DNA from: Acidobacteriota bacterium
Lineage (GTDB): Bacteria > Acidobacteriota > Terriglobia > Acidiferrales > UBA7541
Assembly (NCBI GenBank): GCA_003223255.1
Contig: QHYJ01000284.1
Span: 1 to 46,570 of the forward strand
Direction: 5' to 3'
DNA length: 46,570 nt
Shown piece after piece: positions 9,038 through 32,662 of this stretch. Numbering within the stretch: the stretch's first letter is position 1; each line of letters starts with the position of its first letter. Made by a program: the position numbers and the translations under genes. The notes beneath the pieces are model-generated. The model saw nothing but the letters and a program-made list of their open reading frames with translations, was not told the origin of the DNA and ran no database searches.

Positions 9038-9969
9038 TCGCCCTGCTCGAGGAACTGATGCAAGAAGACACGGCGGGCGACCCCACAAGTGACAAGAAGT
9101 GGAGCCGGAAAGACACGCGATCGATCAGTCAGGAAATGACTGCCCGGGGAGTGCCCCTCTGCCCCAATACGGCGGGCCAGCTGCTGAAGCACTGTCAGTA
9201 CTCCCTTCGCGTCAACCGCAAAAGCATCGCTGAGACCCAGCATCCCGACCGCAACCGACAATTCGAACTGATCGCCGACTTCCGCAAGCGATTCGAAGAT
9301 GCCAGCCGTCCGATTGTCAGCCTGGATACGAAGAAAAAGGAACTCATCGGCAACTTTAAGAATGCGGGACAAACCTGGAAGAAAGAGCCCGAGCAGGTCA
9401 ACCAGCACGATTTCCGGAGCCAAGCATCGGCCCTGGTTTCGCCCTATGGACTCTATGAGCCGGTTGGGAATCGCGGAACGATCGTGATCGGCACTTCCGC
9501 CGACACTCCGGAATTCGCCGTGGACTGCCTGGACCGATGGATCGCGGAATTCGGCTGGACCACCTATCCCCGCATGCAGGAAATCCTGTTGCTCTGTGAC
9601 AGCGGAGGCAGCAATGGCTACCGACCACGCCTTTGGAAATACAGTCTCTACCAAACCATTGCCCGAGCCCACGGCCTCACCGTTACGGTGTGCCACTACC
9701 CTCCTGGTGCTTCGAAATGGAACCCGGTCGAGCATCGCCTATTCAGTTTCATCAGCTTGGAGTGGGCCGGCCACCAGCTCCGCTCGCTGGAGGCCATGAT
9801 GAGCTACATTGAAAGCACAACCACCAAGACCGGCCTCAAAGTGAAAGCTCTTCTCAATAAACGGGAGTACGCCAAAGGCAAGGCAGTGCCCGATCACATG
9901 TTCAAAACGATTCCCTTATCGAACCACTCAGAACTGCCGGCATGGAACTACACAATTCGCCCCAACTGA
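9034..9969 (+). CDS. ISAzo13-type transposase, downstream frame (DDE catalytic domain)
   Basis: 312 codons in the -1 frame relative to the preceding gene, overlapping it by 4 bases. It has the Rhodopirellula/ISAzo13-type DDE domain: first Asp in IVSLDTKKKELIGNFKNAG, second Asp in LLLCDSGGSNGYR, Glu in GASKWNPVEHRLFSF. The frame is open upstream through the A10 run (Ala-Lys-Lys-Lys-Thr-Glu-Val). A -1 slip there would give a continuous transposase of about 567 residues. A GTG at 9034 could start the domain alone, but without its DNA-binding part. Confidence 0.88.
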   Translation: MIALLEELMQEDTAGDPTSDKKWSRKDTRSISQEMTARGVPLCPNTAGQLLKHCQYSLRVNRKSIAETQHPDRNRQFELIADFRKRFEDASRPIVSLDTKKKELIGNFKNAGQTWKKEPEQVNQHDFRSQASALVSPYGLYEPVGNRGTIVIGTSADTPEFAVDCLDRWIAEFGWTTYPRMQEILLLCDSGGSNGYRPRLWKYSLYQTIARAHGLTVTVCHYPPGASKWNPVEHRLFSFISLEWAGHQLRSLEAMMSYIESTTTKTGLKVKALLNKREYAKGKAVPDHMFKTIPLSNHSELPAWNYTIRPN

Positions 9970-14868: not shown

Positions 14869-17271
14869 GTGCCGGGGGAATCCATCCGCGCTAATCCCGT
14901 AAGAACGATGACAAATCCCGTCCCCAAAATGGAGCACCCCGCCTTATCTCAAGGAGCCAAAAGAACCTATTGGCGCGTGGAAGGCTCCCTGCTCGAAATT
15001 GGCGCTTTGCGACCAGTGGGCTTCTTCACCTGGAACGCACGAAGCTTTTCCGAGCGCTGGGCCCGGCGCGCCGGGATGGCCGGGATGGCGCTGACTCGGC
15101 CTGTTGCGTACGCAGCAAGCCGCACTTTTGCCACTCGGTTCCTGCACTCGCTACTGAGGGGAGTCAGCCGCGACCGGCTGGACCTGCTCGGCGAAGAGTA
15201 TTTTCATTACGTCCTGAAGCCACAACTCCGCCGCGAGGCAGTGGAAAAGGTCGTGGCGGCCGTTCGTCAGGGCGACCAGGTCGTGCTGGTTGGGCAACTG
15301 CTGGAAAACATTCTTCGCCCGCTGGCGCACCATCTTGGCGTGGAAGCATTTCTCGCGAACCGCTTGGAATATCGCGACGGCAAGGCCACGGGTCGCTTGC
15401 TGGATCCTGTGGTGCGCCCGCGAGGACCTTTCGCGTGGTTGGCGAGTAGTTCCGTCGACGGACGAATTTCTAGAGGAAAGCTGATGAACCAGCTTGGCTT
15501 GCCAGAAAAGGTTGAGCTTCTGGAAAAGGGGATTCAGGCGACGGCTCGGCCACGAACGTACATTCGGGGACCGGTGGCCATTTTTGGAGGCGCGCCCCGG
15601 TTGGTGAACTTTTCGGTGCGGGAAACGCTGGCGAAGCGGGACATTTTGCTGATCGGTGTGACGGGTTTTATCGGGAAGGTTTGGCTCGTGGATTTGCTCG
15701 AAAAGATTCCGAACATCGGCAAGATCACCCTGCTGATTCGGCGGAATCGCACCACCTCGGCGCAACGGCGATTAGAGAAAATCGTGGAAGAATCACCGGC
15801 ATTCGACACGCTGCACGAGCGGCACGGACGAAAGCTTGGCGCCTTTTTGAGTGAGAAGGTGGAAGTGGTCGAAGGGGACGTGAGCCTGCCAGGCCTGGGC
15901 CTGGACGAGGCGACGCAGGGGCGGCTGCAAAAATCGCTGGACTTGATCGTGAATAGCGCGGGTCTGACGGATTTCAACCCAGATTTGCGCGACGCCCTTT
16001 CCTCGAATGTGGATTCGACGCTTCATCTGCTCGATTTCCTTCGGAAATGCCAGCGCGCCGGCCTGATCCATCTTTCCACCTGCTACGTGGTGGGCATGCG
16101 CAATGGCCGCGTCAGCGAGCAACTGGAAGACAATTACAATCCCACGAGGGATCCGCGGTTCGATGCGGAAAATGAGATTGCTTCCCTGCGCGAGAGGGTT
16201 CGGCGCATTGAGGCGCGCGCTGAGAGTCCCGAACTGAGCAAGGCGTTACGCAGGCAGGCTCTGGGACGTGGCGGTGACGAGACTTCAGCACCCGCGGGAG
16301 AGCTGGAAGGAGTGTTGCGGCGCAACCGCGCGCGCTGGGTACGTAACCGGCTAACGCACGTGGGCATGCGTCGCGCGCAACACCTGGGCTGGCCCAATAC
16401 GTACACGTTTACGAAGAGTCTGGGCGAATCGATTTTGGCGCGGCACGGCAAAGATCTTCCCATTGCCATCGTGCGGCCGTCGATTGTCGAGAGCTCGGAG
16501 CGTTCGCCGTTTGCCGGCTGGAACGAAGGAATCAACACCTCGGGGCCCCTGTCGTATTTGCTGGGCACCAATTTCCGCCAGCTTCCGTCGAACGAGCGGA
16601 AATGCTTGGACGTAATCCCAGTGGATATGGTGTGCCGTGGGATGACACTAATTGCCGCCGCGCTGGTCGCTCGGCGACATGCAAGGCTGTACCAGCTCGC
16701 GACCTCGGCCATCAATCCCGTCAACATGGGACGCAGCATCGAGTTGACCGGACTGGCGCACCGCAAGTATTACAGAAGTTCGCAATCCATCGAGAACTGG
16801 CTGAAGGTGAAGTTCGAGTCGATTCCGGTCTCCAAGCAGCGCTACGAGGTGCTCTCGATCCCCATGCAAAAGGCGGTAGTCTCTGGAATCAACCGAGCGG
16901 CCGCCAGCCTGCGCCTGAAGAAAGCGCCGTTCGCCAAAGCCGAGCGTGACCTGATTCGCGCGGAAAAGCTGATCGAGCTTTACGAGCCGTTCATTCTCCA
17001 CAATGAGCAGGTCTTCGAGTGCGAAAACGCGCGCTTGCTTTCGGCAGCCTTGCCGCCTGAAGAACGCGCGCTTTTCGATTTCACGCCGGAAGCCGTGGAT
17101 TGGTGGGATTACTGGATCAATGTGCACATCCCGGCGTTGCGCCGCTGGTGCTATCCGCTGATGGAAGGCCGGCCGCTGAAAGCGCGCGAGCCGCGCGCGC
17201 TTGACTGGAATGGGAACGGTGCGCCCGCGGAGCATGAGGCTCTTTCCAAAGCGGCGCCGTCATCCGATTGA
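14869..17271 (+). CDS. Fatty acyl-CoA/ACP reductase with N-terminal degenerate HAD domain
   Basis: 800 residues from the GTG at 14869 (ATG 14908 and 14929 are alternatives; none has a clear ribosome site). Residues about 30-235 have the shape of a HAD-IB phosphatase (SerB-like), but the nucleophile motif expected as DxDGT reads WRVEGSL (35-41), and the motif-II Ser is Gly in VVLVGQLLEN. Residues about 255-600 form a Rossmann reductase of the FAR 'male-sterility' type: TGFIGK (265-270), GLTDFNPDLRDAL, LSTCYVVG, catalytic YTFTK (512-516), AIVRPSIVESS. A FAR C-terminal region follows to about 760. It should reduce fatty acyl thioesters to aldehyde or alcohol with NAD(P)H. It is the first gene of the lipid cluster. 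Confidence 0.85.
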   Translation: MPGESIRANPVRTMTNPVPKMEHPALSQGAKRTYWRVEGSLLEIGALRPVGFFTWNARSFSERWARRAGMAGMALTRPVAYAASRTFATRFLHSLLRGVSRDRLDLLGEEYFHYVLKPQLRREAVEKVVAAVRQGDQVVLVGQLLENILRPLAHHLGVEAFLANRLEYRDGKATGRLLDPVVRPRGPFAWLASSSVDGRISRGKLMNQLGLPEKVELLEKGIQATARPRTYIRGPVAIFGGAPRLVNFSVRETLAKRDILLIGVTGFIGKVWLVDLLEKIPNIGKITLLIRRNRTTSAQRRLEKIVEESPAFDTLHERHGRKLGAFLSEKVEVVEGDVSLPGLGLDEATQGRLQKSLDLIVNSAGLTDFNPDLRDALSSNVDSTLHLLDFLRKCQRAGLIHLSTCYVVGMRNGRVSEQLEDNYNPTRDPRFDAENEIASLRERVRRIEARAESPELSKALRRQALGRGGDETSAPAGELEGVLRRNRARWVRNRLTHVGMRRAQHLGWPNTYTFTKSLGESILARHGKDLPIAIVRPSIVESSERSPFAGWNEGINTSGPLSYLLGTNFRQLPSNERKCLDVIPVDMVCRGMTLIAAALVARRHARLYQLATSAINPVNMGRSIELTGLAHRKYYRSSQSIENWLKVKFESIPVSKQRYEVLSIPMQKAVVSGINRAAASLRLKKAPFAKAERDLIRAEKLIELYEPFILHNEQVFECENARLLSAALPPEERALFDFTPEAVDWWDYWINVHIPALRRWCYPLMEGRPLKAREPRALDWNGNGAPAEHEALSKAAPSSD

Positions 17272-17274
17272 TTT

Positions 17275-18425
17275 ATGGCGATCTTGGTCACCGGTTCGAC
17301 CGGCTATTTGGGCAGTTACGTGGTCGCGGGGCTCCTCGCAGGGCATCGCGACAAGCTGAATTTGCTGGTGCGAGCGAAAACCGAACAGGAAGCGCGCGAA
17401 CGGCTTTGGACTTCCCTGCAATTGCATTTTGAGTTTCCGGAATTCCTAGAATACCTAGACACGCGGATGCGCATTTTCCGCGGCGATTTGACCAGCGAGT
17501 GGTTTGGTCTGGCGGACGACGAATACCATGCGCTGGTAGACACTACGGATTCGCTGATTCATTGTGCGGCTTCGCTAAACCGCAAATCGGAGAAGCAATG
17601 CCTGAACGTGAACCTGCGCGGCACGCTGGAAGTGATTCAACTGGCGCGTCGGGCGCAGGACCGTCATGGGCTGCGCCGGTATTCGCAGATTTCGACCGTG
17701 GCCGTCGCGGGAAAACGAAAAGATGAAGTGGTAACCGAAGATGGCGCCATCGATTGGGAACGCTCGGACTACGATCCTTATGCCCGCACAAAAAAGTTTT
17801 GCGAACACATGGCCAACCGATGGCTGCCGGATGTGCAGAAGACGATCTTCCGCCCCGCGATCGTGCTAGGAGACAGCCGGCGACCGGAGACTTCGCAATT
17901 CGACATGGTGCGGGCGGTCCATTTCCTGGCGCGCATGCCCGTGCTTCCGCTGCGTCCGCACGATAGAATCGACGTCGTGCCCGCGAACTATGTCGGCAAA
18001 GCGGTGGTGACCATTCACCAGAAAGAAGCGCCCGCACATGGCATCTATCATCTGTCTTCCGGACGGGGGTCGCAGACCTACGTGGAACTAACGGAGGCGA
18101 TTGCCCAGGCAGGCGGAATGCGCAGACCATTATTCTGGCCTTCGCTGGATGGGCCGTTTTCGCGAACGGTAAATTGGGCGGCGAAACGCGGAGGCGCGGT
18201 GGGACACGCGGCTTCCCTGCTCAAAGTGTTCTGGCCGTATCTGGACTGGAATACGGTGTTCGATAATTCGCGGGTGGTCGCGGAACTTGGCGAAGCGCCG
18301 GCAAAATTCTCGACGTATGCGGCCGGCCTTCTGAAATTCAGCCGAGATAATCATTTTCGCTACCCAGCCAAACCTTGGCCGGCCAACGCAAGTGCTGAGA
18401 GGGCCGCAGTGGGGCGAGCGAGCGC

Positions 18426-18429
<4 letters not shown>
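17275..18429 (+). CDS. Thioester-reductase-like SDR family oxidoreductase
   Basis: 384-residue extended short-chain dehydrogenase. The NAD(P)-binding TGSTGYLG is at 6-13, the LLVRAK strand typical of thioester reductase domains at 30-35, and the catalytic YARTK at 169-173. [10 protein letters not shown] and a substrate domain follow. It starts 3 bases after the acyl reductase stop and overlaps the next gene by 4 bases, so translation is probably coupled. It may be a second acyl-thioester or lipid-aldehyde reductase. An epimerase-type role on a sugar headgroup cannot be excluded. Confidence 0.85.
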
Positions 18430-19865
<1,436 letters not shown>

Positions 19866-19871
19866 TTCTTC

Positions 19872-21563
19872 ATGCAGAATTTTCTTGAAAATATCTTCGC
19901 GCAGTTAAAAAAGGCAGATGTGCGCGCCGTACTGCGGGAGATCCACGGCGAACAGTTTTTGAGCGTGACCGGGAGTGAATTGCTCCAGCAGGTTGAGCAA
20001 GTGCGGGCATTCCTCCGTAGTTCCGCGGTTCAGCCGGGAGATCGCTGCGCGCTGCTTGCGGCTAATTCCATCCGGTGGGTGGCGGTTGATCTGGCAATGA
20101 TGGCCGAGGGCCTGATTGTGGTGCCGCTTTATTCACGGCAGGCGCCCAGCGAACTGGCGGCAATGATGAAGGATTGCCAGCCGCGCCTGCTTTTTGTGGG
20201 TGATGCTGCCCTCGGTGAAGCCGTCGCGCAGGTTTGGTGCGATGCCCCGCCGCGAGTTCTTCTGGATCAAGCGCTCAGAGAAAACAGACCCACAGCTGTC
20301 GGTTCCGATTTGCCGATTTCGCGCACGGACTCTGACATTGTCACGATTATTTACACGTCTGGAACTTCAGGCCAACCAAAAGGCGTGTGCCTCCACGCTA
20401 GCAACCTGAACTATATGCTCGCGCGCACGACCGAGCGGCTTGAGCAGCTGATGGCTGCTACGCACGCGCAAGGTCCCGACCATGTCTTTCATTATTTGCC
20501 TTTCAACTTTGCAGCGTCATGGCTCCTTTTGCTTTCCTGCCTCACGCGAGAAACCACATTGACGCTTTCAACGGATTTGAACAAACTCGCGGATGAAATT
20601 CGGCTTTCCTCGCCGAATTACTTCCTGAATGTGCCTGCGCTGCTCGAGCGCGTGCGGCGTGGAGTCGAAGAAGCCTTGGTCAAACGCGCTGCGCCGATCC
20701 GGTCGTTATTCGAAAAATCGCGCGCCGCGTGGCAGCGGCAAAACGCTGGAAGTGCTGGTGCGGCGGACAGATTTTGGTTCTGGCTGGCAAACAAAATCAT
20801 CTTCAGCAAAATCAAGGAACGCTTTGGCCGTGATCTGCGCGCGCTCATTTGCGGTTCCGCACCACTCGCTCCGGAGACACAGCAGTTTTTCCGCATGCTG
20901 GGCATTCCAGTCCTGCAAGCCTACGGCCTCACGGAAACCACCGGCATCTGCACGATGGATGACCCGCGAGAATCCGCGGAGCCTGGTTACGTCGGATTGC
21001 CAATTGCCGGAATCGAGATGAAAATTGGCGAAAACGACGAAATTCTGACGCGAGGACCGCACATTTTTCCCGGCTACTGGAATCGCCCCGAAGAAACGGC
21101 GCACGTGTTGCGAGGTGGCTGGTTCCACACCGGCGATCAAGGTGAAGTGAATGCGCGCGGCAAATGGCGCATCAGCGGCCGGATTAAGAATCTGATCGTG
21201 CTGAATTCCGGACACAAGATTGCGGCGGAGCCCATGGAAGAGAAAATCGCGCGTCTGCTGCCTGCTGCGCAGCAAGTTGTGATTGTCGGCAATGGCCGGG
21301 GCTATCTTTGCGCCTTGATCGCCGGAACCGTGGAAGCCAGCGCCGTTGAGGCAGCATTCGAAGTCGTGAATCGCGAACTGCCGCACTACCGGCAGATCCG
21401 AAATTTCAAATTGATTGGTAATGCCTTCACGGCGGAAAGCGGGCTGCTGACGGCCAATGGCAAGCTTCGCCGTGATGCCGTCAACGCGCGCTTCGCTGCG
21501 GAAATCAACGCCATGTACGAAGAAAGAAAAGAACGCGAAGCGCTCAGCAGGCAGCACGCATGA
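19872..21563 (+). CDS. AMP-dependent acyl-activating enzyme 1 (acyl-CoA/acyl-ACP synthetase)
   Basis: 563 residues of the ANL superfamily. The P-loop YTSGTSGQPKG is at 161-171. Further motifs are AYGLTETTG, WFHTGDQG and GRIKNLIVLNSGHKI. The C-terminal lysine region is TANGKLRRDAV. The reaction is fatty acid + ATP to acyl-AMP, then transfer to CoA or ACP. It starts 6 bases after the pyruvyl transferase and overlaps the enoyl-CoA hydratase by 4 bases. The ACP gene downstream makes ACP a plausible acceptor. Substrate chain length cannot be told from the sequence. Confidence 0.92.
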   Translation: MQNFLENIFAQLKKADVRAVLREIHGEQFLSVTGSELLQQVEQVRAFLRSSAVQPGDRCALLAANSIRWVAVDLAMMAEGLIVVPLYSRQAPSELAAMMKDCQPRLLFVGDAALGEAVAQVWCDAPPRVLLDQALRENRPTAVGSDLPISRTDSDIVTIIYTSGTSGQPKGVCLHASNLNYMLARTTERLEQLMAATHAQGPDHVFHYLPFNFAASWLLLLSCLTRETTLTLSTDLNKLADEIRLSSPNYFLNVPALLERVRRGVEEALVKRAAPIRSLFEKSRAAWQRQNAGSAGAADRFWFWLANKIIFSKIKERFGRDLRALICGSAPLAPETQQFFRMLGIPVLQAYGLTETTGICTMDDPRESAEPGYVGLPIAGIEMKIGENDEILTRGPHIFPGYWNRPEETAHVLRGGWFHTGDQGEVNARGKWRISGRIKNLIVLNSGHKIAAEPMEEKIARLLPAAQQVVIVGNGRGYLCALIAGTVEASAVEAAFEVVNRELPHYRQIRNFKLIGNAFTAESGLLTANGKLRRDAVNARFAAEINAMYEERKEREALSRQHA

Positions 21564-22363
21564 AGAACTTCAAGGGTAAAACGCTGCGCTGGGAATGGCG
21601 CGAAGGATGCATCGAGTTAACGCTTGATCATGAGCCCGCCAATGAAATTGGCACGGCGATGCTGGAGGAGTTGGAGCTCTTTGTTGGCGCTTTTGACGCG
21701 CTTGTGCCCGAAACTTCCTCGTGCATTATTTCCAGCGCGCGAAAATCCGTTTTTTCGGCGGGCGGAGATCTGCGCGAACTGTACCGTCAAGCGGCGTCAG
21801 TTCCTGAAAAAGAACGCCTAGAGGGAATTTACAGCTTCTTGGGGCGCATCCATGCCGTCATGAACACGATTGATGCGGCTCCGTTTGTCACCATTGCGGC
21901 GGTTCACGGCGCGTGCCTGGGCGGTGGGCTCGAGCTCGCACTTGCCTGCGACATCATTATTGCTGACAAAATGGCGCGCTTTGCGTTTCCAGAACTGCGG
22001 CTCGGGTTTATCCCCGGTTTTGGTGGCATTCCTCGCTTGAAACGCGACTTGGGAAATGCGGTCGTTCGCGATTTGCTGTTTACCGGCCGCACATTAAATG
22101 CGACACGCGCGCATGCCGTTGGACTCGTGGCGCAGCTGGCAGGCGAGGGGGAAGCACTTCGCGTCGCGCGATCCACTTCCGCACAGGTGGTAAAGTACGA
22201 CCCCGTGGCACGCGCCGCCGCTAAGGAATTCATGAAGCCAATTCCCCACGAGGAACTGCAGCGCGAGATCGATGTTTTCTGCGAACTATTTACGCGCCCC
22301 GAGGTCATGGCCGCCCTGAAGAAATTCGTGGAAGACTCCGGTCCGATGCCTTATTTGCCTTAA
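21560..22363 (+). CDS. Enoyl-CoA hydratase/isomerase family protein
   Basis: 267-residue crotonase-fold protein. The oxyanion-hole segment is FSAGGDL (65-71) and the second is GACLGGGLELALACD. Both acidic residues of true hydratases are present, E125 (GGLELALACD) and E145 (FPELRLGFIPGFGG), so hydratase activity is plausible. It starts in an ATGA overlap with the acyl-activating enzyme, which implies tight co-expression. In this cluster it could hydrate or isomerise an unsaturated acyl chain before or after reduction. The actual step is unknown. Confidence 0.88.
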   Translation: MKNFKGKTLRWEWREGCIELTLDHEPANEIGTAMLEELELFVGAFDALVPETSSCIISSARKSVFSAGGDLRELYRQAASVPEKERLEGIYSFLGRIHAVMNTIDAAPFVTIAAVHGACLGGGLELALACDIIIADKMARFAFPELRLGFIPGFGGIPRLKRDLGNAVVRDLLFTGRTLNATRAHAVGLVAQLAGEGEALRVARSTSAQVVKYDPVARAAAKEFMKPIPHEELQREIDVFCELFTRPEVMAALKKFVEDSGPMPYLP

Positions 22364-22697
22364 GAGGAACGAGACTCACAATTGTCTTTTTCCCAGGGAG
22401 CGGAAGCCTTCCTTAGCTGAAATCTCTCGACGAACAACGCACCCACAAGCAATCCGCCTCCCATTAGGCCAAAAACAAGTATGGTCAAACGCGTGAGCCT
22501 AGTGTTCTCTTCCTTTGTTAGGTAGACGACGTGTCGTGTGTATTTTGTCGGAAGACCCTGCCAGCAGACACAACAGCTTGTGTTGGCCGTGTCTCGTCCT
22601 AAAGGTACCAGACGTAAAAATGGAAAAGCCAGATCGCAAGCGCTGTAAGGCAAAGAAGCGCCGCAAGTACGCGTCCTCGCTTGCGATATTTGCTCAT
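22360..22697 (-). pseudogene. Small two-TM membrane protein, antisense to the lipid operon, frameshifted
   Basis: On the minus strand an ATG at 22697 opens MSKYRKRGRVLAALLCLTAL, a positively charged start followed by a transmembrane helix, and stops at 22599. From about 22605 a different frame continues (LGRDTANTSCCVCWQGLPTK, TKEENTRLTRL, then a second hydrophobic helix TILVFGLMGGGLLVGALF and a charged tail) to 22360. The two pieces together make a sensible protein of about 110 residues with two membrane helices, so a one-base frameshift is likely. I do not recognise the family. It occupies the only large gap of the lipid cluster. Confidence 0.45.
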
Positions 22698-22790
22698 GGC
22701 TAGCGCCAAGGTCATGCGAGATTATTCTAGCTCCCTGGTATTGGCTGGACTCAATCAACTAGTTCCTAGAGTTCGTTTCCTCTGGTAGAG

Positions 22791-23051
22791 ATGATAAATT
22801 GGGGCTCTGTGCGCACATTGGAGCAAACTACGCAGGAAATCCTCGACTTGGCGGCAAAGCATTTTCAATTGCCGGCGGGATCGCTCGCACCGGAAGACGA
22901 TTTTTTCAAGAAACTCGGGATTGACAGCCTGCAAACGCTGGAAATGCTCTCCCGCCTGGAAAATCATTTCGGTATCGAGCTGCCGGACTACGAAGTCCAG
23001 GGCGTAAGCGATTTCAAGACCCTGGCCAAGCGCATCCAGTCCCGCCTGTGA
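22791..23051 (+). CDS. Acyl carrier protein
   Basis: 86-residue stand-alone carrier protein, acidic and helical. The phosphopantetheine attachment serine is S46 in KLGIDSLQTLEML, followed by the usual helix III region (FGIELPDYEVQGVSDFKTLAKRI). The ATG at 22791 is used; a GTG at 22809 is a possible alternative. A dedicated ACP next to two acyl-activating enzymes and acyl reductases suggests that chains are processed on ACP rather than only on CoA. It is separated from the second acyl-activating enzyme by an inserted GxxExxY cassette. Confidence 0.93.
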   Translation: MINWGSVRTLEQTTQEILDLAAKHFQLPAGSLAPEDDFFKKLGIDSLQTLEMLSRLENHFGIELPDYEVQGVSDFKTLAKRIQSRL

Positions 23052-23506
23052 GCAAGCCACTTCAGCCACAGAGTCGCAGAGACACGGAGATCGACAGAAG
23101 ACCCGTGCTCGGATCCGCAACGCGCAACGACGACTTGACCGGCAAAATCATTGGCTGCGCCATTGAGATTCACCGACATCTCGGCCCTGTCCTTCTTGAA
23201 TCCATTTACGAATCAGCGTTGGCTGCCCAATTAGAGTTACAGGGAATCCGCTATAAGCGTCAGATCGAGATTCGCATAAATTACCGTGGACGGGTTATTG
23301 GTGCGCACAAACTAGACTTTATCGTGGAGAACGCCGTGGTATTGGAACTGAAAAGCGTGGAGCGGTTTGACCCGGTCTTCGAAGCTCAGGTCCTCACCTA
23401 CATGAGAATTGCAAAGCTTACTTCAATTCCCCTTTATTGCATGAAGGCATCAAGAGATTTATTCTTTGAAATTTGTTTCTCTGTGCCTCTGTGGCTCAGT
23501 GGCTGA
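23048..23506 (+). CDS. GxxExxY family protein, C-terminus frameshifted
   Basis: The core matches GxxExxY proteins: KIIGCAIEIHRHLGPVLLESIYE with the name motif, a PD-(D/E)XK-like region (HKLDFIVENAVVLELKSVE) and FEAQVLTYMRIA. The expected ending (LxYFNxPLLxEGIKRFIL then stop) is readable in another frame, ending at the TGA at 23467-23469. A frameshift near 23420 has therefore replaced the tail, and the current frame runs on into the right flanking repeat. The GTG at 23048 overlaps the ACP stop, but the original start was probably inside (for example GTG 23105), after the left flanking repeat. The family's function is unknown. It behaves as an inserted cassette here. Confidence 0.8.
   Translation: MSKPLQPQSRRDTEIDRRPVLGSATRNDDLTGKIIGCAIEIHRHLGPVLLESIYESALAAQLELQGIRYKRQIEIRINYRGRVIGAHKLDFIVENAVVLELKSVERFDPVFEAQVLTYMRIAKLTSIPLYCMKASRDLFFEICFSVPLWLSG
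23062..23090 (+). repeat. Left inverted repeat flanking the GxxExxY cassette
   Basis: CAGCCACAGAGTCGCAGAGA, continuing CACGGAGA, is an imperfect inverted copy of the right flank at 23475-23506, whose complement reads CAGCCACTGAGCCACAGAGG and then CACAGAGA. The CACAGAG-type words recur at the desulfurase 3' end (1921-2036). Confidence 0.7.
23475..23506 (-). repeat. Right inverted repeat flanking the GxxExxY cassette
   Basis: TTTCTCTGTGCCTCTGTGGC, continuing into TCAGTGGCTGA, mirrors the left flank at 23062-23090 with a few mismatches and a small insertion. The two define a cassette of about 445 bp between the ACP and the second acyl-activating enzyme. Confidence 0.7.
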
Positions 23507-23518
23507 TTCTTCTTCAAA

Positions 23519-25228
23519 ATGCTGGATCTGAACAAATACCAATCCTTAGGTGCTGCGCTGAAAGATGCGCTGGACCGCTTCGCAGACAAAGTGTGCTTGA
23601 TCGAAGCCGACCGCGAACGCGAGAAAGAGCGCCTGACGTATCGCGATTTCAAGGAGCGCGCGCATCCCCTCGCGAGTGCTTTGCGGGATGCAGGCTTCTC
23701 TGCGGGAGACCGGGCCAGCATCATCATGACCAATCAGTCGAAGTGGCTGATTTCCGCTTATGCTGTTCTCTACGCGGGTGGCGTGCTGGTTCCACTCGAT
23801 TACAAGCTCACTCCCGAAGAACAGTGGCAACTCCTCAAGCATTCGGGCGCAACCGTGCTTATCACCGAGCATGCGATCTGGCGGCAGCTCAGCGCCGCGA
23901 CCGGACGCGCATCGGCAACTGTGCAAAATGTTTTTGTGAGCGAAGCACCGCCCAACGCCGAGCTTGCGGGCGCGAAGCGCTGGGAAGAATTTCGGGGAGC
24001 CGCTGAACCTGCCTTCGTCCCGCGCACGCGCAAAGATGTCGCCTGCATCGTGTACTCCTCCGGGACCGGCGGCCGTGCCAAGGGCTGCATGATGACCCAC
24101 GAAAACTATCTGGAACAGTGCGTTGCGTTGACCTCGATTTACCCCTTCTGGCCGGGCGTACGCTATCTCAGCATTCTTCCGACGAATCATGCCATCGATT
24201 TCATGGTCGGATTCATCGGGCCGTTAACGTGCGGCGCCGCGGTCGTGCATCTGCGCACGCTGCGACCGGAATATGTGCGCGAAGCATTTCCGAAGTACGA
24301 CATCACTTATGTCAGCCTTGTTCCGCTGGTGCTGAAGAATTTGCAGAAAGGTCTGCAAACGCGCTTCGACGCTCTGGCCACGGGCAAACGTAAAATTTTT
24401 AATTCGCTTGTTGCCGTCAACAAAGTTTTGACAAAGGACCGGCCGCGATTAGGCATCAGCCGCTTGCTGCTCAAGCAGGTCCACGAGGCATTTGGCGGAG
24501 AACTGCGAGCCATCATTGTTGGTGGCGCGTTCACTGAACCGCAGACGCTGCAGTTCTTCTACGATTTGGGAATCCCCGTCGCCAACGGCTACGGCCTCAC
24601 CGAAGCGGGCACGGCGATTACGGTCAATGACCTAAAGCCGTTTCGCGCGGATACCGTCGGCAAGCCGTTACGGGGGATGGAAGTACGCATCCTAAATGCA
24701 GACCGCGACGGCGTCGGAGAAATTGCAGTGCGCAGCAAAACCGTCATGGCTGGTTATCTCAATGATCCGGAACTCACCGCCGAGACGATTGTGGATGGTT
24801 GGTTGATGACCGGCGACCTCGGAAATTTCGACGAGCACGGTCACTTGCAGCTGCGCGGGCGCAAGAAAAACATGATCGTAACCGAGGAGGGCAAGAACAT
24901 TTACCCGGAGGACATTGAAAGCGTCTTCGAAGGGCTTCCGGTGAAGGAATTTTGCGTTTTTGCCGCTAACTACATTTGGGCCAAGCGCTCGATGACGGGA
25001 GAGCAGCTCGTGCTCGCGCTGCATCTCGAGCCAAGTCAGCAATTCAGTGACGAACTTCGCCGCGAAATCAACGCGCGCAACCAGCGCCTGCTAAACTATA
25101 AGCGGGTTCAAGGGGTCGTTCTGCTGGACGAGGATTTTCCTCGGACGGCTTCTTTGAAGATCAAGAGGAATCTGCTGGCCGAGCGGCTAGCCAAGCTGGA
25201 CAGGGCTTCTGCGATTCTGCCCTTGTGA
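23519..25228 (+). CDS. AMP-dependent acyl-activating enzyme 2
   Basis: 569-residue ANL-superfamily enzyme. The P-loop is [11 protein letters not shown] (179-189). Further motifs are [18 protein letters not shown] and [21 protein letters not shown]; the C-terminal lysine is in [10 protein letters not shown]. It is clearly divergent from the first acyl-activating enzyme of this cluster, so the two probably have different substrates or acceptors (CoA versus ACP). It is followed at 70 bp by a lipid kinase gene. Its 5' end lies just beyond the right repeat of the GxxExxY cassette, so it was presumably next to the ACP before that insertion. Confidence 0.92.
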
Positions 25229-25297
25229 GTTGCTTTCTTATTCTCAGTGCAAGCAATTTTTCTAATGGCCGGGGTCCCAGGTTCAGGCGCGTTCCAA

Positions 25298-26197
25298 ATG
25301 CAACGATTTTTCGCCATTGTCAACCCCGCCGCAGGTGGCGGCCGCTCTGCGAAGCTCGCCGGACCCGCGCTGGCCCGTTTGCGCCAGCACAAGTTGGAGG
25401 TGGACAGCGTGGCCTCGAGGGAGCCAAGGCATGCCGTCGAGCTTGCGCATGAAGCCTACGATCAAGGCTACCGCCAGTTTCTCGCCGTCGGCGGAGATGG
25501 AACAGCCCACGAAATTTTGAATGGCATCTTTACCGGCCGCAAATCCGTGGACCGCGTTACCCTCGGATTCCTTCCTCTGGGAACGGGCAACTCCTTTCTC
25601 AAGGATTTCACAAAGAACGGCGCGGAAGCCTCAACACAAGCTATTCTGCAAAACCGGAAACGCGCCATCGATCTGATTCGCCTAAACCACGCCACGGGCG
25701 AAATCTATTCTTTCAACCTGCTGAGCGTCGGCTTCACCGCGGATGTTGCGGCTCTGACGAATCGCGCCTTCAAGCCCTTCGGCCCTCTCGGATACTTGCT
25801 CGGCGTGTTTGTCCGCGTCGTGCAATTGCACCGGCGCTCCTTCGCCTTGCGTTGCGATGACGATCAGGAATGGGACGAGCGGCGCTCGCTGTTTCTCACC
25901 TTCAACAACAGCAAATATACGGGCGGCAAAATGCTGATTGCTCCGCAAGCCGATCCCGCCGATGGCTTGATCGAATTTGTTCGCTGGGGACCCATCGGAC
26001 GGTTGGGCTTGCTGCGCAACCTGCCGAGGCTCTATGACGGCTCGCACATCGAGCATCCGCTGGCTTCGCGGCGAGCGGTGCGCCACGTCGAATTCAACGT
26101 CTCCGAGCCGCTGGACATCATGATTGATGGCGAAGTCGCGACGCTGGAATGTCGTTCGCTCGACGTTATTCCCTCTGCCGTCGACGTGTTTCTATGA
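25298..26197 (+). CDS. Diacylglycerol kinase-like lipid kinase (YegS/DagK/LCB5 family)
   Basis: 299 residues from the ATG at 25298, chosen because MQRFFAIVNPAAGGGRS is the classical family start; GTG 25247 and ATG 25265 give longer versions. The ATP-binding GGDGT is at 65-69, followed by LGFLPLGTGNSFLKDF. The C-terminal beta-sandwich has the GGKMLIAPQADPADGLIEFV motif. It phosphorylates a lipid hydroxyl, such as that of diacylglycerol or another long-chain alcohol. It ends in an ATGA overlap with the acyltransferase gene, so the two are translationally coupled and probably act in sequence on one lipid. Confidence 0.9.
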   Translation: MQRFFAIVNPAAGGGRSAKLAGPALARLRQHKLEVDSVASREPRHAVELAHEAYDQGYRQFLAVGGDGTAHEILNGIFTGRKSVDRVTLGFLPLGTGNSFLKDFTKNGAEASTQAILQNRKRAIDLIRLNHATGEIYSFNLLSVGFTADVAALTNRAFKPFGPLGYLLGVFVRVVQLHRRSFALRCDDDQEWDERRSLFLTFNNSKYTGGKMLIAPQADPADGLIEFVRWGPIGRLGLLRNLPRLYDGSHIEHPLASRRAVRHVEFNVSEPLDIMIDGEVATLECRSLDVIPSAVDVFL

Positions 26198-26943
26198 AAA
26201 AAGCGTGGTTCGTCTTGCGCAGCGCGCTTCTCTGGATGGTCAGCGGCTTGCATTTTTTCCTGGTCGTCCCTGTGCTGTTGTTCTTAGGGATCTTTCTCGA
26301 CGCCCGCAGGCATGATTGGCTCCAGCGAAGTTTATGCCGGCGCATTGCTTTTCTTTCGGGAGCGAAGGTCGAGGTGCGCCGTCCGCCCGGCTTCGATCCC
26401 CAGCGTACCTCGTTCTTTTTCTCGAACCATGTCAATCTCTTCGATCCCTTTATGCTGTACTGCGCCATTCCGCAGTTTGTCCGCGGATGGGAATTAGAAT
26501 CGCACTTCAAAATTCCCGCGTACGGTTGGCTGATGAAACGTTTCGGGAACGTTCCCGTGCCGGATGTGCGGCGCCCGTCGGATTTGAAACGCATGTGGCG
26601 CTTGACGCAGGAAGCCATCGATTCCGGCACAAGCCTCGTTATTTTCCCCGAAGCCAGACGCACGCGCGATGGTCATGTAAACGAATTCCAGGAAGGCGGC
26701 TTCCGGGTCGCGCAACAGCTTGGCGTTCCTATCGTGCCGGTCAGCCTGGTGGGCTCGTTCCAGCATCATCGCACCGGGCACTGGATGCTCTGGCCGGGAA
26801 AAATCACCGTCTATCTACACGACACAATCGAAACGAAAGTTCTGCACAAGGAAGAGGTGCCCGCCCTCCGGGACCGCGTGCGGGCGATTATTGCCGGACC
26901 GGTCGAAGCCCCTCTAAGAGCACAGGAGCGAGAGCTACTTTGA
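26194..26943 (+). CDS. 1-Acyl-sn-glycerol-3-phosphate acyltransferase-like (PlsC family)
   Basis: 249-residue membrane acyltransferase. An N-terminal hydrophobic anchor (about 11-33) is followed by the HX4D catalytic motif HVNLFD (H79 to D84). The third block reads FPEARRTRDG, where most family members have FPEGTRSR, and the last is VPIVPVSLVGS. It transfers an acyl group from CoA or ACP to a lysophosphatidate-like acceptor at the inner membrane. It is the last gene of the lipid cluster. Its 3' end overlaps, on the other strand, the end of a decayed vapC gene. The altered block III may indicate an unusual acceptor. Confidence 0.9.
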   Translation: MKKAWFVLRSALLWMVSGLHFFLVVPVLLFLGIFLDARRHDWLQRSLCRRIAFLSGAKVEVRRPPGFDPQRTSFFFSNHVNLFDPFMLYCAIPQFVRGWELESHFKIPAYGWLMKRFGNVPVPDVRRPSDLKRMWRLTQEAIDSGTSLVIFPEARRTRDGHVNEFQEGGFRVAQQLGVPIVPVSLVGSFQHHRTGHWMLWPGKITVYLHDTIETKVLHKEEVPALRDRVRAIIAGPVEAPLRAQERELL

Positions 26944-27741: not shown

Positions 27742-28359
27742 CTATAGGGAAAGTTTGATTCCGGGCAGCGTCCGCCCGGCCTTGGTCTCCTGCCAGGTGA
27801 AGACGATGCGGTGAATCACGGTGATGGTGGACACAACGGCGATGACCCACAACACCGGCCCCATGCGATTGAAAAGCCCGCCGATGATGAGCAGCACCAG
27901 CCGCTCTGGCCGTTCCATGAATCCGACTTTGCACAGAGGAATCAGCGATTCGGCGCGAGCTCGCGCGTAGCTGACCATTACCGATCCGGCTGTCGCGACC
28001 GCTGCCAGAATAACGTACGGCGTACGCCCGCTCACGGAGTAGTACACCAACAGCCCCATGTACAACGCCATGTCCGCGTAACGGTCCAGCGTCGAATCGT
28101 AGAACGCGCCAAAGGCCGTCACGCGGTTCTGCTTGCGCGCCACTTGCCCGTCCAGCATATCCAAAAATCCGGCGCAAAAAATAATGATGGCTCCGGTGCG
28201 AAATCCGCCGACGGCCAAAAAAGCGGCGGCGCCGAAGTTCACCACGAGGCCCAAAAACGTAAGAAAGTTGGGATTGATCCCGGTTGCGGCGATGGCTCCG
28301 ACAATTTTGTCGAGCAACCACTTACCTCCGGTGCCGATCGCCCCCGTGAAAGTCGCCAT
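27742..28359 (-). CDS. CDP-alcohol phosphatidyltransferase family protein
   Basis: 205-residue integral membrane enzyme. The family motif is complete: DMLDGQVARKQNRVTAFGAF then YDSTLDR, giving D67, D70, G71, A74, R75, G84, D88 and D92. The enzyme displaces CMP from CDP-diacylglycerol with an alcohol such as inositol phosphate or glycerol phosphate to make a phospholipid. Several hydrophobic segments surround the motif. It lies convergent to the lipid cluster, across the decayed vapBC module, and may act on its product; the acceptor alcohol cannot be assigned. Confidence 0.9.
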   Translation of the reverse strand: MATFTGAIGTGGKWLLDKIVGAIAATGINPNFLTFLGLVVNFGAAAFLAVGGFRTGAIIIFCAGFLDMLDGQVARKQNRVTAFGAFYDSTLDRYADMALYMGLLVYYSVSGRTPYVILAAVATAGSVMVSYARARAESLIPLCKVGFMERPERLVLLIIGGLFNRMGPVLWVIAVVSTITVIHRIVFTWQETKAGRTLPGIKLSL

Positions 28360-28507: not shown

Positions 28508-30229
28508 ATGCCCGAACCGAGGTATAAAACAACCGACGAAGTCGACTTTGTCATCATTGGCAGCGGCGCCTCAGGCGGCGTCCTCGCCAAAGAGCTTTCC
28601 ACGAATGGCTTTCGCGTGGTCGTCCTGGAGCAGGGGCCTTACCTGACCGAAGCGGACTTCACCCACAACGAAGTGGAAGTCTTGAAGCGAAACCAGCTCA
28701 CGAATCATCCGGACCTTCAGTCCACGACCTTTCGCAAAGCCCCCCAGGAAAAGGCGAAGCGGCAACGCGGGCTCGTCTACGGCCGGATGGTCGGCGGGTC
28801 CGGCGTCCATTTCACCGCCAATTACTGGCGCTTCCACGAAATTGACTTCGTCGAGCGCAGCAAAGTCGGGCCGGTTCCCGGCGCTGCTCTGGCCGATTGG
28901 CCCATCACGTATGCAGACCTTGAGCCCTATTACACAAAAGTCGAATGGGAAATCGGCGTTTCCGGTCTGGCGGGCGCGAGCCCGTTTGATCCGCCGCGAT
29001 CTAAGCCCTACCCCATGCCGCCGCTGCCGGTGAAATCCGGCGGCGTCATCTTCGAACGCGCTGCCCGCAAGCTGGGGTGGCATCCCTTCCCCGCCCCGAT
29101 GGCCATTCTCTCTCAGCCTCGCCCTGGGCGCAGCGCCTGCGTTCAGTGCGGTTTCTGCGAGAGCTTCGGCTGTGAAGTCGGCGCGAAGTCCAGCACCCTC
29201 GCGACCGTCATTCGCATCGCCGAAAAAACGGGCCGGTGCGAGATTCGCCCCAACTGTTACGTCTATCGCATTGAAACCAATGCAAACGGCCGTGTCATCG
29301 GCGCTGCGTATTTCGACAAAAAGCGGACGACGCGTTTACAACGAGCCAAAGCGGTTGTCGTCTGCGCGAACGGTGCGGAGACTCCGCGGCTGCTGCTCCT
29401 GTCGGCCAGCAAGCAATTCCCCGACGGCCTCGCGAATTCCAGTGGCCTCGTCGGCAAATACCTGATGTTAAATTCCGGTCCCTCCGCCATGGCCGTCTTT
29501 GAACATCCTTTGAATGACTACAAAGGCGTTGCGGTCAGCCGCATCCTGCACGACTTCTACGAACTCGATCCCCAAAAACTCGGATTTTATGGCGGTGGTG
29601 GTCTTGACGCGCGCTTGGATCTCACTCCCATTAGTTTTGCCATCAGTGGCTACGACATGGGCGGCTTGCCGCCGGGAACCCCGCGATGGGGAAAAGAATT
29701 CAAGGTCGCCCTGGCGCACAATTACACGCGCACTCTGGAAATCTTGTCGCACGGAACTTCCCTGCCTGTGGAGAGCAACAGTTTTTCGCTGGATCCCGAT
29801 CTGAAAGAATCCCGGGGCTTGCCGGCCTTGCGAATGACCTACAAGGATCATCCCGACGATCTCAAGCTCGGCGCTTTTCTGCGCGACCGCATCCTGGAGC
29901 TGCTCGATGCTACCGACGCCGTGCAAAAGTGGGCCTCTTCGATCGAAGAGCAAGATTTTGCTTACCACCTGCTGGGCACCTGCCGTATGGGCAACGACCC
30001 AAAATCCTCGGTCATCAATGCCGACCATCGCGCCCACGATATGAAGAACCTGCAGCCTGGTCACTTCGGGCCGCGGGCAGCCGACGGAAACGATCAGCGC
30101 GCTTGCTTATCGGGCGGCCGACCGCATCACCGCTCTGACGCGCCGCGGCGAGATTTAATGACAGTCAAATTGGCTGCTGAACATGTTTCGAATGGCTTGA
30201 CGCTCCGGGCCATGCAGCTTACAGTCTGA
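28508..30229 (+). CDS. GMC oxidoreductase 1 (gluconate/glucose dehydrogenase-type), C-terminus frameshifted
   Basis: FAD-dependent dehydrogenase catalytic subunit. GSGASGGVLAKEL forms the FAD-binding loop near the N-terminus. A Cys cluster CVQCGFCESFGCEVGAKSS is present, and the active-site region YHLLGTCRMGND is intact. After DMKNL a short deletion (I estimate about 17 bases near 30056) shifts the frame. The normal ending SLVTSGRGQPTETISALAYR is readable in another frame up to a TAA at 30156-30158, while the current frame runs on to 30229 with unrelated residues. The C-terminal active-site and FAD-contact segment is thus lost. It is a tandem paralogue of GMC oxidoreductase 2 at 30922, nearly identical over long blocks. 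Ribosome site AGGAAACAGG precedes the ATG. Confidence 0.85.
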   Translation: MPEPRYKTTDEVDFVIIGSGASGGVLAKELSTNGFRVVVLEQGPYLTEADFTHNEVEVLKRNQLTNHPDLQSTTFRKAPQEKAKRQRGLVYGRMVGGSGVHFTANYWRFHEIDFVERSKVGPVPGAALADWPITYADLEPYYTKVEWEIGVSGLAGASPFDPPRSKPYPMPPLPVKSGGVIFERAARKLGWHPFPAPMAILSQPRPGRSACVQCGFCESFGCEVGAKSSTLATVIRIAEKTGRCEIRPNCYVYRIETNANGRVIGAAYFDKKRTTRLQRAKAVVVCANGAETPRLLLLSASKQFPDGLANSSGLVGKYLMLNSGPSAMAVFEHPLNDYKGVAVSRILHDFYELDPQKLGFYGGGGLDARLDLTPISFAISGYDMGGLPPGTPRWGKEFKVALAHNYTRTLEILSHGTSLPVESNSFSLDPDLKESRGLPALRMTYKDHPDDLKLGAFLRDRILELLDATDAVQKWASSIEEQDFAYHLLGTCRMGNDPKSSVINADHRAHDMKNLQPGHFGPRAADGNDQRACLSGGRPHHRSDAPRRDLMTVKLAAEHVSNGLTLRAMQLTV

Positions 30230-30253
30230 AAAGTTATCCAAAGGACTTCCGAA

Positions 30254-30925
30254 ATGAATGAATCCGTCAGCCGCCGTCATTTTTTGTCGCGAGGCATCAC
30301 GGGGGTCTCCGCGGTTTGGGCCACCGCCCATTGGCCTGCCCTTCTGGCTGCTGCCACGCACGCGCACCAAGCCGCCAAATCGGCAACGCCTCCCAAATTT
30401 GCATTTTTCACCACGGACGAAGCCAAGGAGATTGACGCCATCACGTCGTGTATCATCCCCAGCGATGACACACCCGGGGCGCACGAAGCTGGCGTGGTTT
30501 ATTTTATCGACCGCGGACTTACCACGTTTGGCGTCGACGATCAAAAAACCTATCGCGAAGGTCTGCCGGAACTGCAATCCAGAGTCGCGGAAATGTTTCA
30601 GGGCAAATCCAGATTCTCCGAACTGACGCCTGAGCAGCAAGACGAATTTCTCCATTCGTTCGACGACCAGAGCCAACCCGGTCGCCAGCGCCGGTTCCGC
30701 ACGAGTCCCGGAGCACAAAACTTCTTCGAAACGCTCCGCCAGCACACCATCGCGGGCTTTTTAATCGATCCTGATTACGGCGGCAATCGTGATGGCGTAG
30801 GGTGGAAAGTGATTGGCCGGGAACGCGAACACATGTTTCAGCCGCCGTTCGGCTATTACGACAAGGGCTATCCCGGATGGGAAGCGGCAGCGAAGGAAGA
30901 GACGAAGGAAGCGGAGAAGAAATGA
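30254..30925 (+). CDS. Gluconate 2-dehydrogenase subunit 3 family protein (Tat-exported small subunit)
   Basis: 223 residues. The N-terminus has a twin-arginine signal (SRRHFLSRG, residues 6-14, then a hydrophobic stretch). The mature part matches Gluconate_2-dh3 proteins: FFTTDEAKEIDAITSCIIPS, then DDTPGAHEAGVVYFIDRGL, and near the end GWKVIGRE...PPFGYYD. In known FAD-glucose/gluconate dehydrogenases this small subunit carries the Tat signal and takes the GMC subunit to the periplasm. It overlaps GMC oxidoreductase 2 in an ATGA, which marks that paralogue as its main partner. Confidence 0.9.
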   Translation: MNESVSRRHFLSRGITGVSAVWATAHWPALLAAATHAHQAAKSATPPKFAFFTTDEAKEIDAITSCIIPSDDTPGAHEAGVVYFIDRGLTTFGVDDQKTYREGLPELQSRVAEMFQGKSRFSELTPEQQDEFLHSFDDQSQPGRQRRFRTSPGAQNFFETLRQHTIAGFLIDPDYGGNRDGVGWKVIGREREHMFQPPFGYYDKGYPGWEAAAKEETKEAEKK

Positions 30926-32586: not shown

Positions 32587-32662
32587 GTTCCGTGGAATCT
32601 CACTGGAACTGCTGCAACGACTTCTCGAGCGCTTTCGTCACAGAATCTGCGAGGTCAAATCC

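What the first reader, a model, noticed from the sequence alone, without database searches (positions are those of the whole stretch)
14869..26943. Uncharacterised lipid-biosynthesis operon combining acyl reductases, pyruvyl transferase, ACP, two acyl ligases, lipid kinase and PlsC
Nine co-directional genes, several joined by ATGA overlaps, encode a HAD-like/acyl reductase fusion, a second thioester-reductase-like SDR, a polysaccharide pyruvyl transferase, two divergent acyl-activating enzymes, an enoyl-CoA hydratase, an ACP, a DagK/YegS-type kinase and a PlsC-type acyltransferase. A CDP-alcohol phosphatidyltransferase lies just beyond. I know of no named pathway with this set. Activation, reduction to aldehyde or alcohol, phosphorylation, acylation and ketal addition would suit a new ether, wax-like or pyruvylated glycerolipid. 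Acidobacteriota are known for unusual membrane-spanning and ether lipids. No alkylglycerone-phosphate-synthase-like gene is present, so the known plasmalogen-type route is not an obvious match.
Basis: partly seen in the sequence, partly recalled or inferred. Interest (0 to 1): 0.8.

Follow-up and report, generated by a model that had tools for sequence, protein, structure and literature searches.

The report
Split ether-lipid-type operon with pyruvyl transferase
Most sampled genomes of one order of Acidobacteriota carry this lipid-making operon; it resembles a taken-apart relative of the myxobacterial ether-lipid operon with a pyruvate-attaching enzyme added, so it may make an acidic membrane lipid not yet described.

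Summary
They form two runs: HAD-FAR / SDR / pyruvyl transferase (PPT) / ligase 1 / crotonase, and ACP / ligase 2 / DAGK / PlsC. The set is strongly conserved: the order FAR to DAGK is complete in 43 of 51 long-enough named loci; HAD-FAR and PPT occur in the same 9 of 297 phylum genomes; in the window's order 80 (FAR) and 77 (PPT) of 95 genomes have them, in the genus 36 of 36. 'No named pathway' is only partly right: FAR + acyl ligase + ACP + PlsC is the domain set of ElbD, the multidomain enzyme of the myxobacterial ether-lipid (elb) operon, and the FAR groups with ElbD FARs. But it is not elb proper: the activities are separate genes, the ElbB-like HAD has lost its nucleophile (79 of 79), the ElbC homologue is absent, PPT, ligase 1 and crotonase are added, and a ligase tree does not place either ligase as sister of ElbD's. 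No AGPS-like or DUF2229 protein was found in the draft genome. Best reading: an elb-like pathway making a fatty-alcohol-derived, probably ether, phospholipid with a PEP-derived pyruvate group. The product is not shown.

The parts
14869..17271 (+). HAD-like domain without nucleophile fused to an alcohol-forming-type fatty acyl reductase (FAR; NAD_binding_4 + Sterile)
   Evidence: best fold match rice DPW 7eoz; YTFTK active site kept; motif I reads WRVEGSL in place of the D-x-[DE]-G-T of free HADs near ElbD
17275..18429 (+). SDR of the thioester-reductase-like NAD_binding_4 family
   Evidence: TGSTGYLG and YARTK present
18426..19865 (+). PS_pyruv_trans protein (PPT), GT-B fold, probable PEP-dependent pyruvyl transferase
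   Evidence: R176, R346, H348, R368 invariant in the 40 rows chosen for alignment A2
19872..21563 (+). acyl-activating enzyme 1 (LIG1, AMP-binding + AMP-binding_C_3)
21560..22363 (+). crotonase/enoyl-CoA hydratase family; both motif glutamates present (that these are the hydratase pair is recalled)
   Evidence: GGGLE and PELRLG; both motifs in 54 of 54 full-length relatives
22791..23051 (+). acyl carrier protein with the DSL phosphopantetheine site
23048..23506 (+). GxxExxY (PDDEXK_3) gene between ACP and ligase 2, probably an intruder, flanked by 22-nt inverted arms 23064-23085 / 23475-23496
   Evidence: not found in L069 (87% FAR identity), found in 3 of 80 named loci
23519..25228 (+). acyl-activating enzyme 2 (LIG2), next to the ACP
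   Evidence: best own-genome BLAST match of 7 of 9 ElbD ligase domains (one tie, one against); tree does not make it their sister
25247..26197 (+). DAGK/YegS-type lipid kinase
   Evidence: GGDGT present; DAGK-like genes lie within about 3 kb of ElbD or FAR in 7 of 11 elb-type loci, in two of them on the opposite strand
26149..26943 (+). PlsC-type acyltransferase (first-ATG ORF overlaps the kinase ORF by 49 bases; true start may be later)
   Evidence: HVNLFD (HX4D); not in the operon of every lineage
27742..28359 (-). converging CDP-alcohol phosphatidyltransferase, phosphatidylinositol-phosphate-synthase-like; a neighbour, perhaps headgroup enzyme
   Evidence: found in 14 of 80 named loci, many of them too short to tell

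Best explanation
A conserved lipid-biosynthesis operon of Acidobacteriota related, through its reductase and its set of activities, to the elb ether-lipid operon, with the ElbD activities on separate proteins. Likely working: ligase 2 activates a fatty acid and loads it on the ACP; the FAR reduces the acyl-ACP to a fatty alcohol (or aldehyde); the chain is joined to glycerol, probably by an ether link through an unknown step; the kinase and PlsC turn the alkylglycerol into an alkyl-acyl phosphatidic acid; the pyruvyl transferase adds a pyruvate ketal from PEP to a diol of the lipid or its headgroup; ligase 1 and the crotonase supply a 3-hydroxy or otherwise changed acyl group. Shown by sequence: gene identities, active-site motifs, linkage, kinship of the FAR with ElbD FARs. 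Inferred: every reaction, the ether bond, the ketal and the order of steps.
For: Same domain set as ElbD. Window FAR is 29-38% identical to FARs of ElbD-type genomes (up to 338 BLAST bits), against 167 HMMER bits for the best solved FAR, rice DPW (different programs). In a midpoint-rooted tree of 17 FARs the 9 HAD-FARs (99/100) lie beside one group of ElbD and standalone FARs, other ElbD FARs outside. A HAD gene was found by BLAST in 9 of 11 elb-type loci, a DAGK-like gene in 7. The two runs stay in one genome even on different contigs (G132, G062). HAD-FAR and PPT in the same 9 of 297 genomes; in the order 75 both, 5 FAR only, 2 PPT only, 13 neither, of 95. PEP-binding positions of PPT kept. 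M. xanthus elbD mutants lose most ether lipid; its ligase and ACP domains are active in vitro (PMC9131029 passages).
Against: No lipid data. No gene here is known to make an ether bond; how ElbD does so is unknown. ElbC homologue absent from the 9 HAD-FAR genomes. The corrected ligase tree groups LIG2 with another own-genome ligase (L168) and LIG1 with L159, apart from the ElbD ligases (98/96), so the ElbD-like set may have been assembled in part independently. The gene-2 SDR resembles FAR domains more than ElbE-position epimerases. PlsC was found in the window and 3 of the 8 other phylum genomes only, and no DAGK was found after LIG2 in G291. PMC11868695 notes Pontiella with elbD homologues and no ether lipids detected. 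M. xanthus proteins were not compared.
Confidence: 0.42

Rival explanations
1. The ether bond is not made: the operon makes a fatty-alcohol-based glycolipid or wax-like envelope lipid, and PPT pyruvylates a sugar as CsaB and WcaK do.
For: PPT relatives of known function mostly act on saccharides (the CsaB model matches 40 of 40 members at E 0.001 or better); FAR folds like an alcohol-forming plant enzyme; no ether-forming enzyme recognised.
Against: No glycosyltransferase or wax synthase among the ten genes; lipid kinase and PlsC point to a glycerophospholipid; PPT scores far under the CsaB equivalog cut-off (58.6 against 213.1 bits).
Confidence: 0.27
2. Ligase 1 and the crotonase make a 3-hydroxyacyl thioester, the FAR reduces it to a 1,3-alkanediol end, and PPT closes a pyruvate ketal on it (a 1,3-dioxane). 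The product is a new acidic alkanediol lipid.
For: Crotonase keeps both motif glutamates in 54 of 54 relatives; PPT, ligase 1, crotonase and FAR stay together in G062 where the ACP run is on another contig (in G132 the same for FAR, PPT and ligase 1); DxpH shows that a pyruvyl transferase can ketalise a diol on a lipid tail with PEP in vitro (PMC12964715 passages).
Against: Chemistry inferred only; the crotonase may run any crotonase reaction; in G132 the only crotonase hit near is a weak one (27%) and none was found near in L112 and L114; DxpH acts on a lipopeptide and its sequence was not compared here.
Confidence: 0.17
3. A specialised metabolite unrelated to membrane lipids.
For: Ligase/ACP/reductase sets resemble NRPS-like clusters; elbD-type clusters of sponge symbionts are classed as NRPS-like (PMC9426513 passages).
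Against: Present in 36 of 36 genomes of the genus and 80 of 95 of the order; no NRPS or PKS core among the ten genes; lipid kinase and PlsC present.
Confidence: 0.09

Closest known systems
elb ether-lipid operon of Myxococcus xanthus (MIBiG BGC0000871), reported also from Acidobacteriota subdivision 4
   Same: FAR, acyl ligase, ACP and PlsC-type acyltransferase; a HAD domain; an SDR; in unnamed Acidobacteriota a DAGK-like gene is often near ElbD
   Different: activities on separate genes; HAD nucleophile lost; no ElbC (LarA-like) homologue; PPT, second ligase and crotonase added; ligases not sisters of ElbD's
Alcohol-forming fatty acyl reductases (rice DPW, 7eoz)
   Same: NAD_binding_4 + Sterile domains, closest solved fold, E 2e-26
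   Different: N-terminal HAD-like domain; higher scores with FARs of ElbD-type genomes
Ketal-pyruvyl transferases CsaB, WcaK, Pvg1, DxpH
   Same: PS_pyruv_trans family (for DxpH the family is not checked here), GT-B fold; an Arg, RxH and a basic residue 20 positions on are kept
   Different: below the CsaB equivalog cut-off; linked to lipid genes
AGPS plasmalogen route and PlsA/Ger ester-reduction route
   Same: would make ether lipids
   Different: no AGPS-like protein recognised and no DUF2229 protein found in this draft genome

Membership tests
elb ether-lipid operon | one multidomain ElbD protein, FAR-ligase-ACP-acyltransferase | tested here: not met
   the four activities are separate genes; the fused form has 1457 aa in L052
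elb ether-lipid operon | all four ElbD domain types present together and linked | tested here: met
   met in the window; PlsC lacking nearby in several relatives
elb ether-lipid operon | FAR related to the ElbD FAR | tested here: met
   against ElbD-type proteins of unnamed Acidobacteriota; no M. xanthus sequence was available
elb ether-lipid operon | acyl ligase sister to the ElbD ligase domain | tested here: inconclusive
   LIG2 best BLAST match in 7 of 9, one tie, one against; tree places it elsewhere with 85/83 to 98/96 support on the forks concerned
elb ether-lipid operon | active HAD phosphatase (ElbB) | tested here: not met
   WR[VIA]EG in place of D-x-[DE]-G-T in 79 of 79 named relatives whose N-terminus is held (80 loci, L086 cut), against 9 of 9 free HADs found near ElbD
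elb ether-lipid operon | ElbC, here taken as the Lar_N protein in the ElbC position | tested here: not met
   homologue in 0 of 9 HAD-FAR genomes, 27 of 35 others with a FAR match, 3 without one
elb ether-lipid operon | ElbE epimerase-type SDR | tested here: inconclusive
   gene 2 is an SDR but nearer to FAR domains
elb ether-lipid operon | alkyl ether lipid as product | not testable with these tools
   needs lipid analysis
AGPS ether-lipid route | alkylglycerone-phosphate synthase | tested here: not met
   two full FAD-oxidase_C matches in the genome plus a partial one beside the first; L154 best matches glycolate oxidase, 275 bits against 84 for AGPS; L153 (477 aa) not searched against PDB
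PlsA/Ger ester reductases | DUF2229 (PF09989) protein | tested here: not met
   none in the genome; 4 of 14 control genomes ring. That this domain marks PlsA/Ger is recalled
PS_pyruv_trans pyruvyl transferases | Pfam score over cut-off | tested here: met
   31.5 bits, cut-off 25.3
PS_pyruv_trans pyruvyl transferases | PEP-binding Arg, RxH and Lys/Arg | tested here: met
   R176, R346, H348, R368 invariant in 40 of 40 chosen rows; RxH[GA] in 65 of 65 full-length named relatives; mapped to CsaB R148, R306, H308, K328 by motif and spacing, not by a computed alignment
CsaB equivalog | TIGR03609 cut-off 213.1 bits | tested here: not met
   58.6 bits
alcohol-forming FAR | NAD_binding_4 + Sterile with YxxxK | tested here: met
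   (Y[TS].TK pattern in 77 of 79 full-length named relatives)

The most novel reading that the evidence does not exclude
An undescribed class of acidic membrane lipids in Acidobacteriota: alkyl (ether or 1,3-alkanediol) phospholipids capped with a PEP-derived pyruvate ketal, made by a split, ElbC-free elb-like pathway with a pseudophosphatase-reductase, and carried as a core trait by most of an order.
Probability: 0.25. Interest if true: 0.85.

Novelty: new variant of a known kind. Interest (0 to 1): 0.6.

Why it matters
The operon is in 80 of 95 sampled genomes of the window's order and in many other metagenome-assembled Acidobacteriota, a phylum studied as a source of the ether lipids used as soil temperature and pH proxies (PMC10087280, abstract and passages). 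How such ether lipids arise without AGPS or Ger is open. Here each ElbD-type activity is a separate protein that could be assayed singly, whereas FAR and acyltransferase activity of fused ElbD went undetected in vitro (PMC9131029 passages). A pyruvylated lipid would add a new kind of anionic membrane lipid.

Tried and rejected
Rejected or unsupported: canonical plasmalogen route (no AGPS recognised). PlsA/Ger route. PPT as ElbC: a profile of the PPTs finds no ElbC-position protein; the three of those scanned are Lar_N proteins, one of the LarAH14/15/16 model. Tes-type tetraether synthase for the radical SAM gene inside L139: the three solved-structure hits name none. PPT against PDB sequences gave nothing, alone or as a profile; Foldseek and VIA-align gave GT-B proteins in the main, and none of the 50 rows shown by each is labelled a pyruvyl transferase.

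Corrected on checking: some own-genome ligases (L162, L164, L165) were read in a wrong frame and L166, L170 and L171 were left out. One search repeated both with right frames (12 own-genome ligases beside LIG1 and LIG2; L171 gave no hit; some LIG1/LIG2 rows dropped for speed). The BLAST ranking held; the tree does not support LIG2 as sister of the ElbD ligase, so the confidence of the best explanation was lowered from 0.45 to 0.42.

Literature: searches of the open-licence library listed no paper that I recognised as describing this cluster (one search returned none); preprints and most subscription papers are not held. Lorenzen 2014 and Sinninghe Damste 2018 were not read; they are quoted through PMC9131029, PMC10087280 and PMC11868695 passages. 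The unnamed G genomes carry no taxonomy beyond kinship, so that the ElbD-type ones are subdivision 4 is not shown.
Full report
What is there. The window lies in a 6.66 Mb draft genome of 428 contigs, 97.3% complete. They fall into two tight runs: FAR-SDR-PPT-LIG1-ECH (gaps or overlaps of 3 to 6 bases) and ACP-(GxxExxY)-LIG2-DAGK-PlsC, with 427 bases between. The CDP-alcohol phosphatidyltransferase is on the other strand, 27742-28359, nearest to inositol-phosphate lipid synthases but under their cut-off.

Conservation. Of 297 Acidobacteriota genomes drawn across the phylum, 44 match the window HAD-FAR at 1e-30 or better: 9, the window's included, over nearly the full 800 residues (E 1e-269 or better), and 35 over the reductase part. 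A PPT homologue at 1e-20 or better occurs in exactly the same 9 genomes. In the window's order, 80 of 95 genomes have HAD-FAR (1e-150) and 77 PPT (1e-100); comparing the lists, 75 have both, 5 FAR only, 2 PPT only and 13 neither; in the genus 36 of 36 have each. Many are drafts, so misses may be gaps.

Named relatives. Their titles name Acidobacteriota or groups in it, except L076 (titled Betaproteobacteria) and L103 (Bacterium HR10), which carry the same cluster type. Of loci long enough to tell, the genes found downstream on the same strand were: SDR 72 of 73, PPT 63 of 63, LIG1 56 of 56, ECH 53 of 55, ACP 49 of 55, LIG2 49 of 53, DAGK 44 of 51, PlsC 18 of 49; the order FAR to DAGK was complete in 43 of 51. 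Some misses are rearrangements: in L103, L112 and L114 the ACP-LIG2-DAGK run is on the other strand. Some PlsC misses are probably loci that end early. Upstream, the IDH gene of the window is found in 14 loci, of 57 with 3 kb or more upstream, so the operon boundary is real.

Two runs. In the 8 other phylum genomes LIG2 is present in 8 of 8. In G132 and G062 it is on another contig than the FAR and there forms ACP-LIG2-DAGK-PlsC. The runs can be parted on the chromosome yet are kept in one genome, which argues for one pathway. Against a fixed set: PlsC was found in the window, G132, G062 and G235 only; in G084, G210 and G023 an esterase gene stands near instead; G291 shows no DAGK after LIG2 in the stretch read; G132 has only a weak crotonase match.

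Link to elb. In M. xanthus the elb operon has elbB (HAD), elbC (unknown), elbD (FAR, ligase, ACP, acyltransferase) and elbE (epimerase family); elbD mutants lose most ether lipid, and the ligase and ACP domains are active in vitro (PMC9131029, passages). Subdivision-4 Acidobacteriota are reported to hold it (PMC10087280 and PMC11868695, passages). In the phylum sample, 32 of the other 35 FAR-matching genomes have open frames of 1442 residues or more; the one scanned has FAR-ligase-ACP-acyltransferase (L052). In 11 such loci read, a HAD gene was found by BLAST in 9 and a DAGK-like gene in 7; the protein in the ElbC place is Lar_N in the three scanned, and the ElbE place an epimerase-type SDR in the two scanned. 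Thus the window's FAR, LIG2, ACP and PlsC together match the parts of ElbD. In a tree of 17 FARs, rooted at the midpoint, the 9 HAD-FARs form one group (99/100) beside five ElbD or standalone FARs (95/93), while three other ElbD FARs lie outside (100/100). The root is arbitrary and no FARs from other phyla were included.

The ligases are weaker evidence. LIG2 is the best own-genome match of 7 of 9 ElbD ligase domains, ties once and loses once. But in the corrected tree the ElbD ligases form their own group (98/96), and LIG2 and LIG1 each join another ligase of this genome. So common descent with ElbD is supported for the FAR, not for the ligases.

Differences from elb. (a) The activities are on separate proteins. 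(b) The HAD part has lost its nucleophile: WR[VIA]EG in 79 of 79 named relatives whose N-terminus is held (78 by pattern; L069 read by eye) and in the 9, while 9 of 9 separate HADs near ElbD keep D-x-[DE]-G-T. Such strict keeping of a dead motif suggests a structural or regulatory role (inference). (c) A homologue of the ElbC-position protein occurs in 27 of the 35, in 0 of the 9, and in 3 with no FAR match. (d) PPT, LIG1 and ECH are added.

The pyruvyl transferase. AlphaFold gives a confident model (mean pLDDT 88.9) of GT-B fold. R176, R346, H348 and R368 are invariant in 40 chosen rows, and RxH[GA] is present in 65 of 65 full-length named relatives. By motif and spacing they answer to CsaB R148, R306, H308 and K328, tested or proposed as PEP-binding (PMC10435577, passages). 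It is outside the CsaB equivalog (58.6 of 213.1 bits). A pyruvyl transferase, DxpH, puts a pyruvate ketal on a lipid-tail diol with PEP (PMC12964715, passages), so a lipid acceptor has a precedent.

Other parts. The FAR folds like the rice fatty acyl reductase DPW. The ACP serine is kept in 52 of 52 hits, as DSL in 43 and as DSM or NSL in 9. The crotonase keeps two motif glutamates in 54 of 54. The genome has no DUF2229 protein, and of its two full FAD-oxidase_C proteins the one tested is of glycolate-oxidase type.

Reading. The best-supported account is an elb-like pathway making a fatty-alcohol-derived, probably ether, phospholipid with a PEP-derived group. The gene set, linkage and FAR kinship are shown; the reactions and product are inferred. 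Presence in most genomes of an order argues for a main envelope lipid rather than a dispensable metabolite (inference).

Noticed in passing
window 23048-23506: GxxExxY gene flanked by 22-nt inverted arms (86% complementary) between ACP and ligase 2; not found in the close relative L069, found at the same place in L070, L090 and L117; a like arm pair occurs in L090. It looks like an inserted unit.
   Followed up: partly
L052 5504-7099: The protein in the ElbC position (unknown function in the M. xanthus review) is LarA-like: 841.8 bits to the NPN-dependent LarAH14/15/16 model, cut-off 740. Homologues in 27 of 35 ElbD-type genomes. M. xanthus ElbC itself was not compared.
   Followed up: partly
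L139 7084-8769; L145 10777-12486: A gene of 561 or 569 aa lies between ligase 1 and the crotonase in two loci; in L139 it is a radical SAM protein nearest to B12-binding radical SAM models; L145 was not scanned.
   Followed up: partly
L056, L057: Other layout: HAD, Lar_N protein, standalone FAR (580 and 499 aa) and DAGK without an ElbD fusion.
   Followed up: partly
L073 18096-20558: Two trypsin/PDZ protease genes and a LuxR-type regulator between crotonase and ACP; L074 has ORFs of like length there.
   Followed up: no
window 9034-9969 and 12-524: ISAZ013-type transposase and a TrwC relaxase match upstream.
   Followed up: no
window 28508-33820: Two GMC oxidoreductases, a gluconate dehydrogenase subunit 3 and a reaction-centre-type cytochrome c in a row.
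   Followed up: no
L059 8484-10073: Second PPT-like protein (34-35% identity) in G062, near an MFS transporter, on another contig than the lipid operon.
   Followed up: partly
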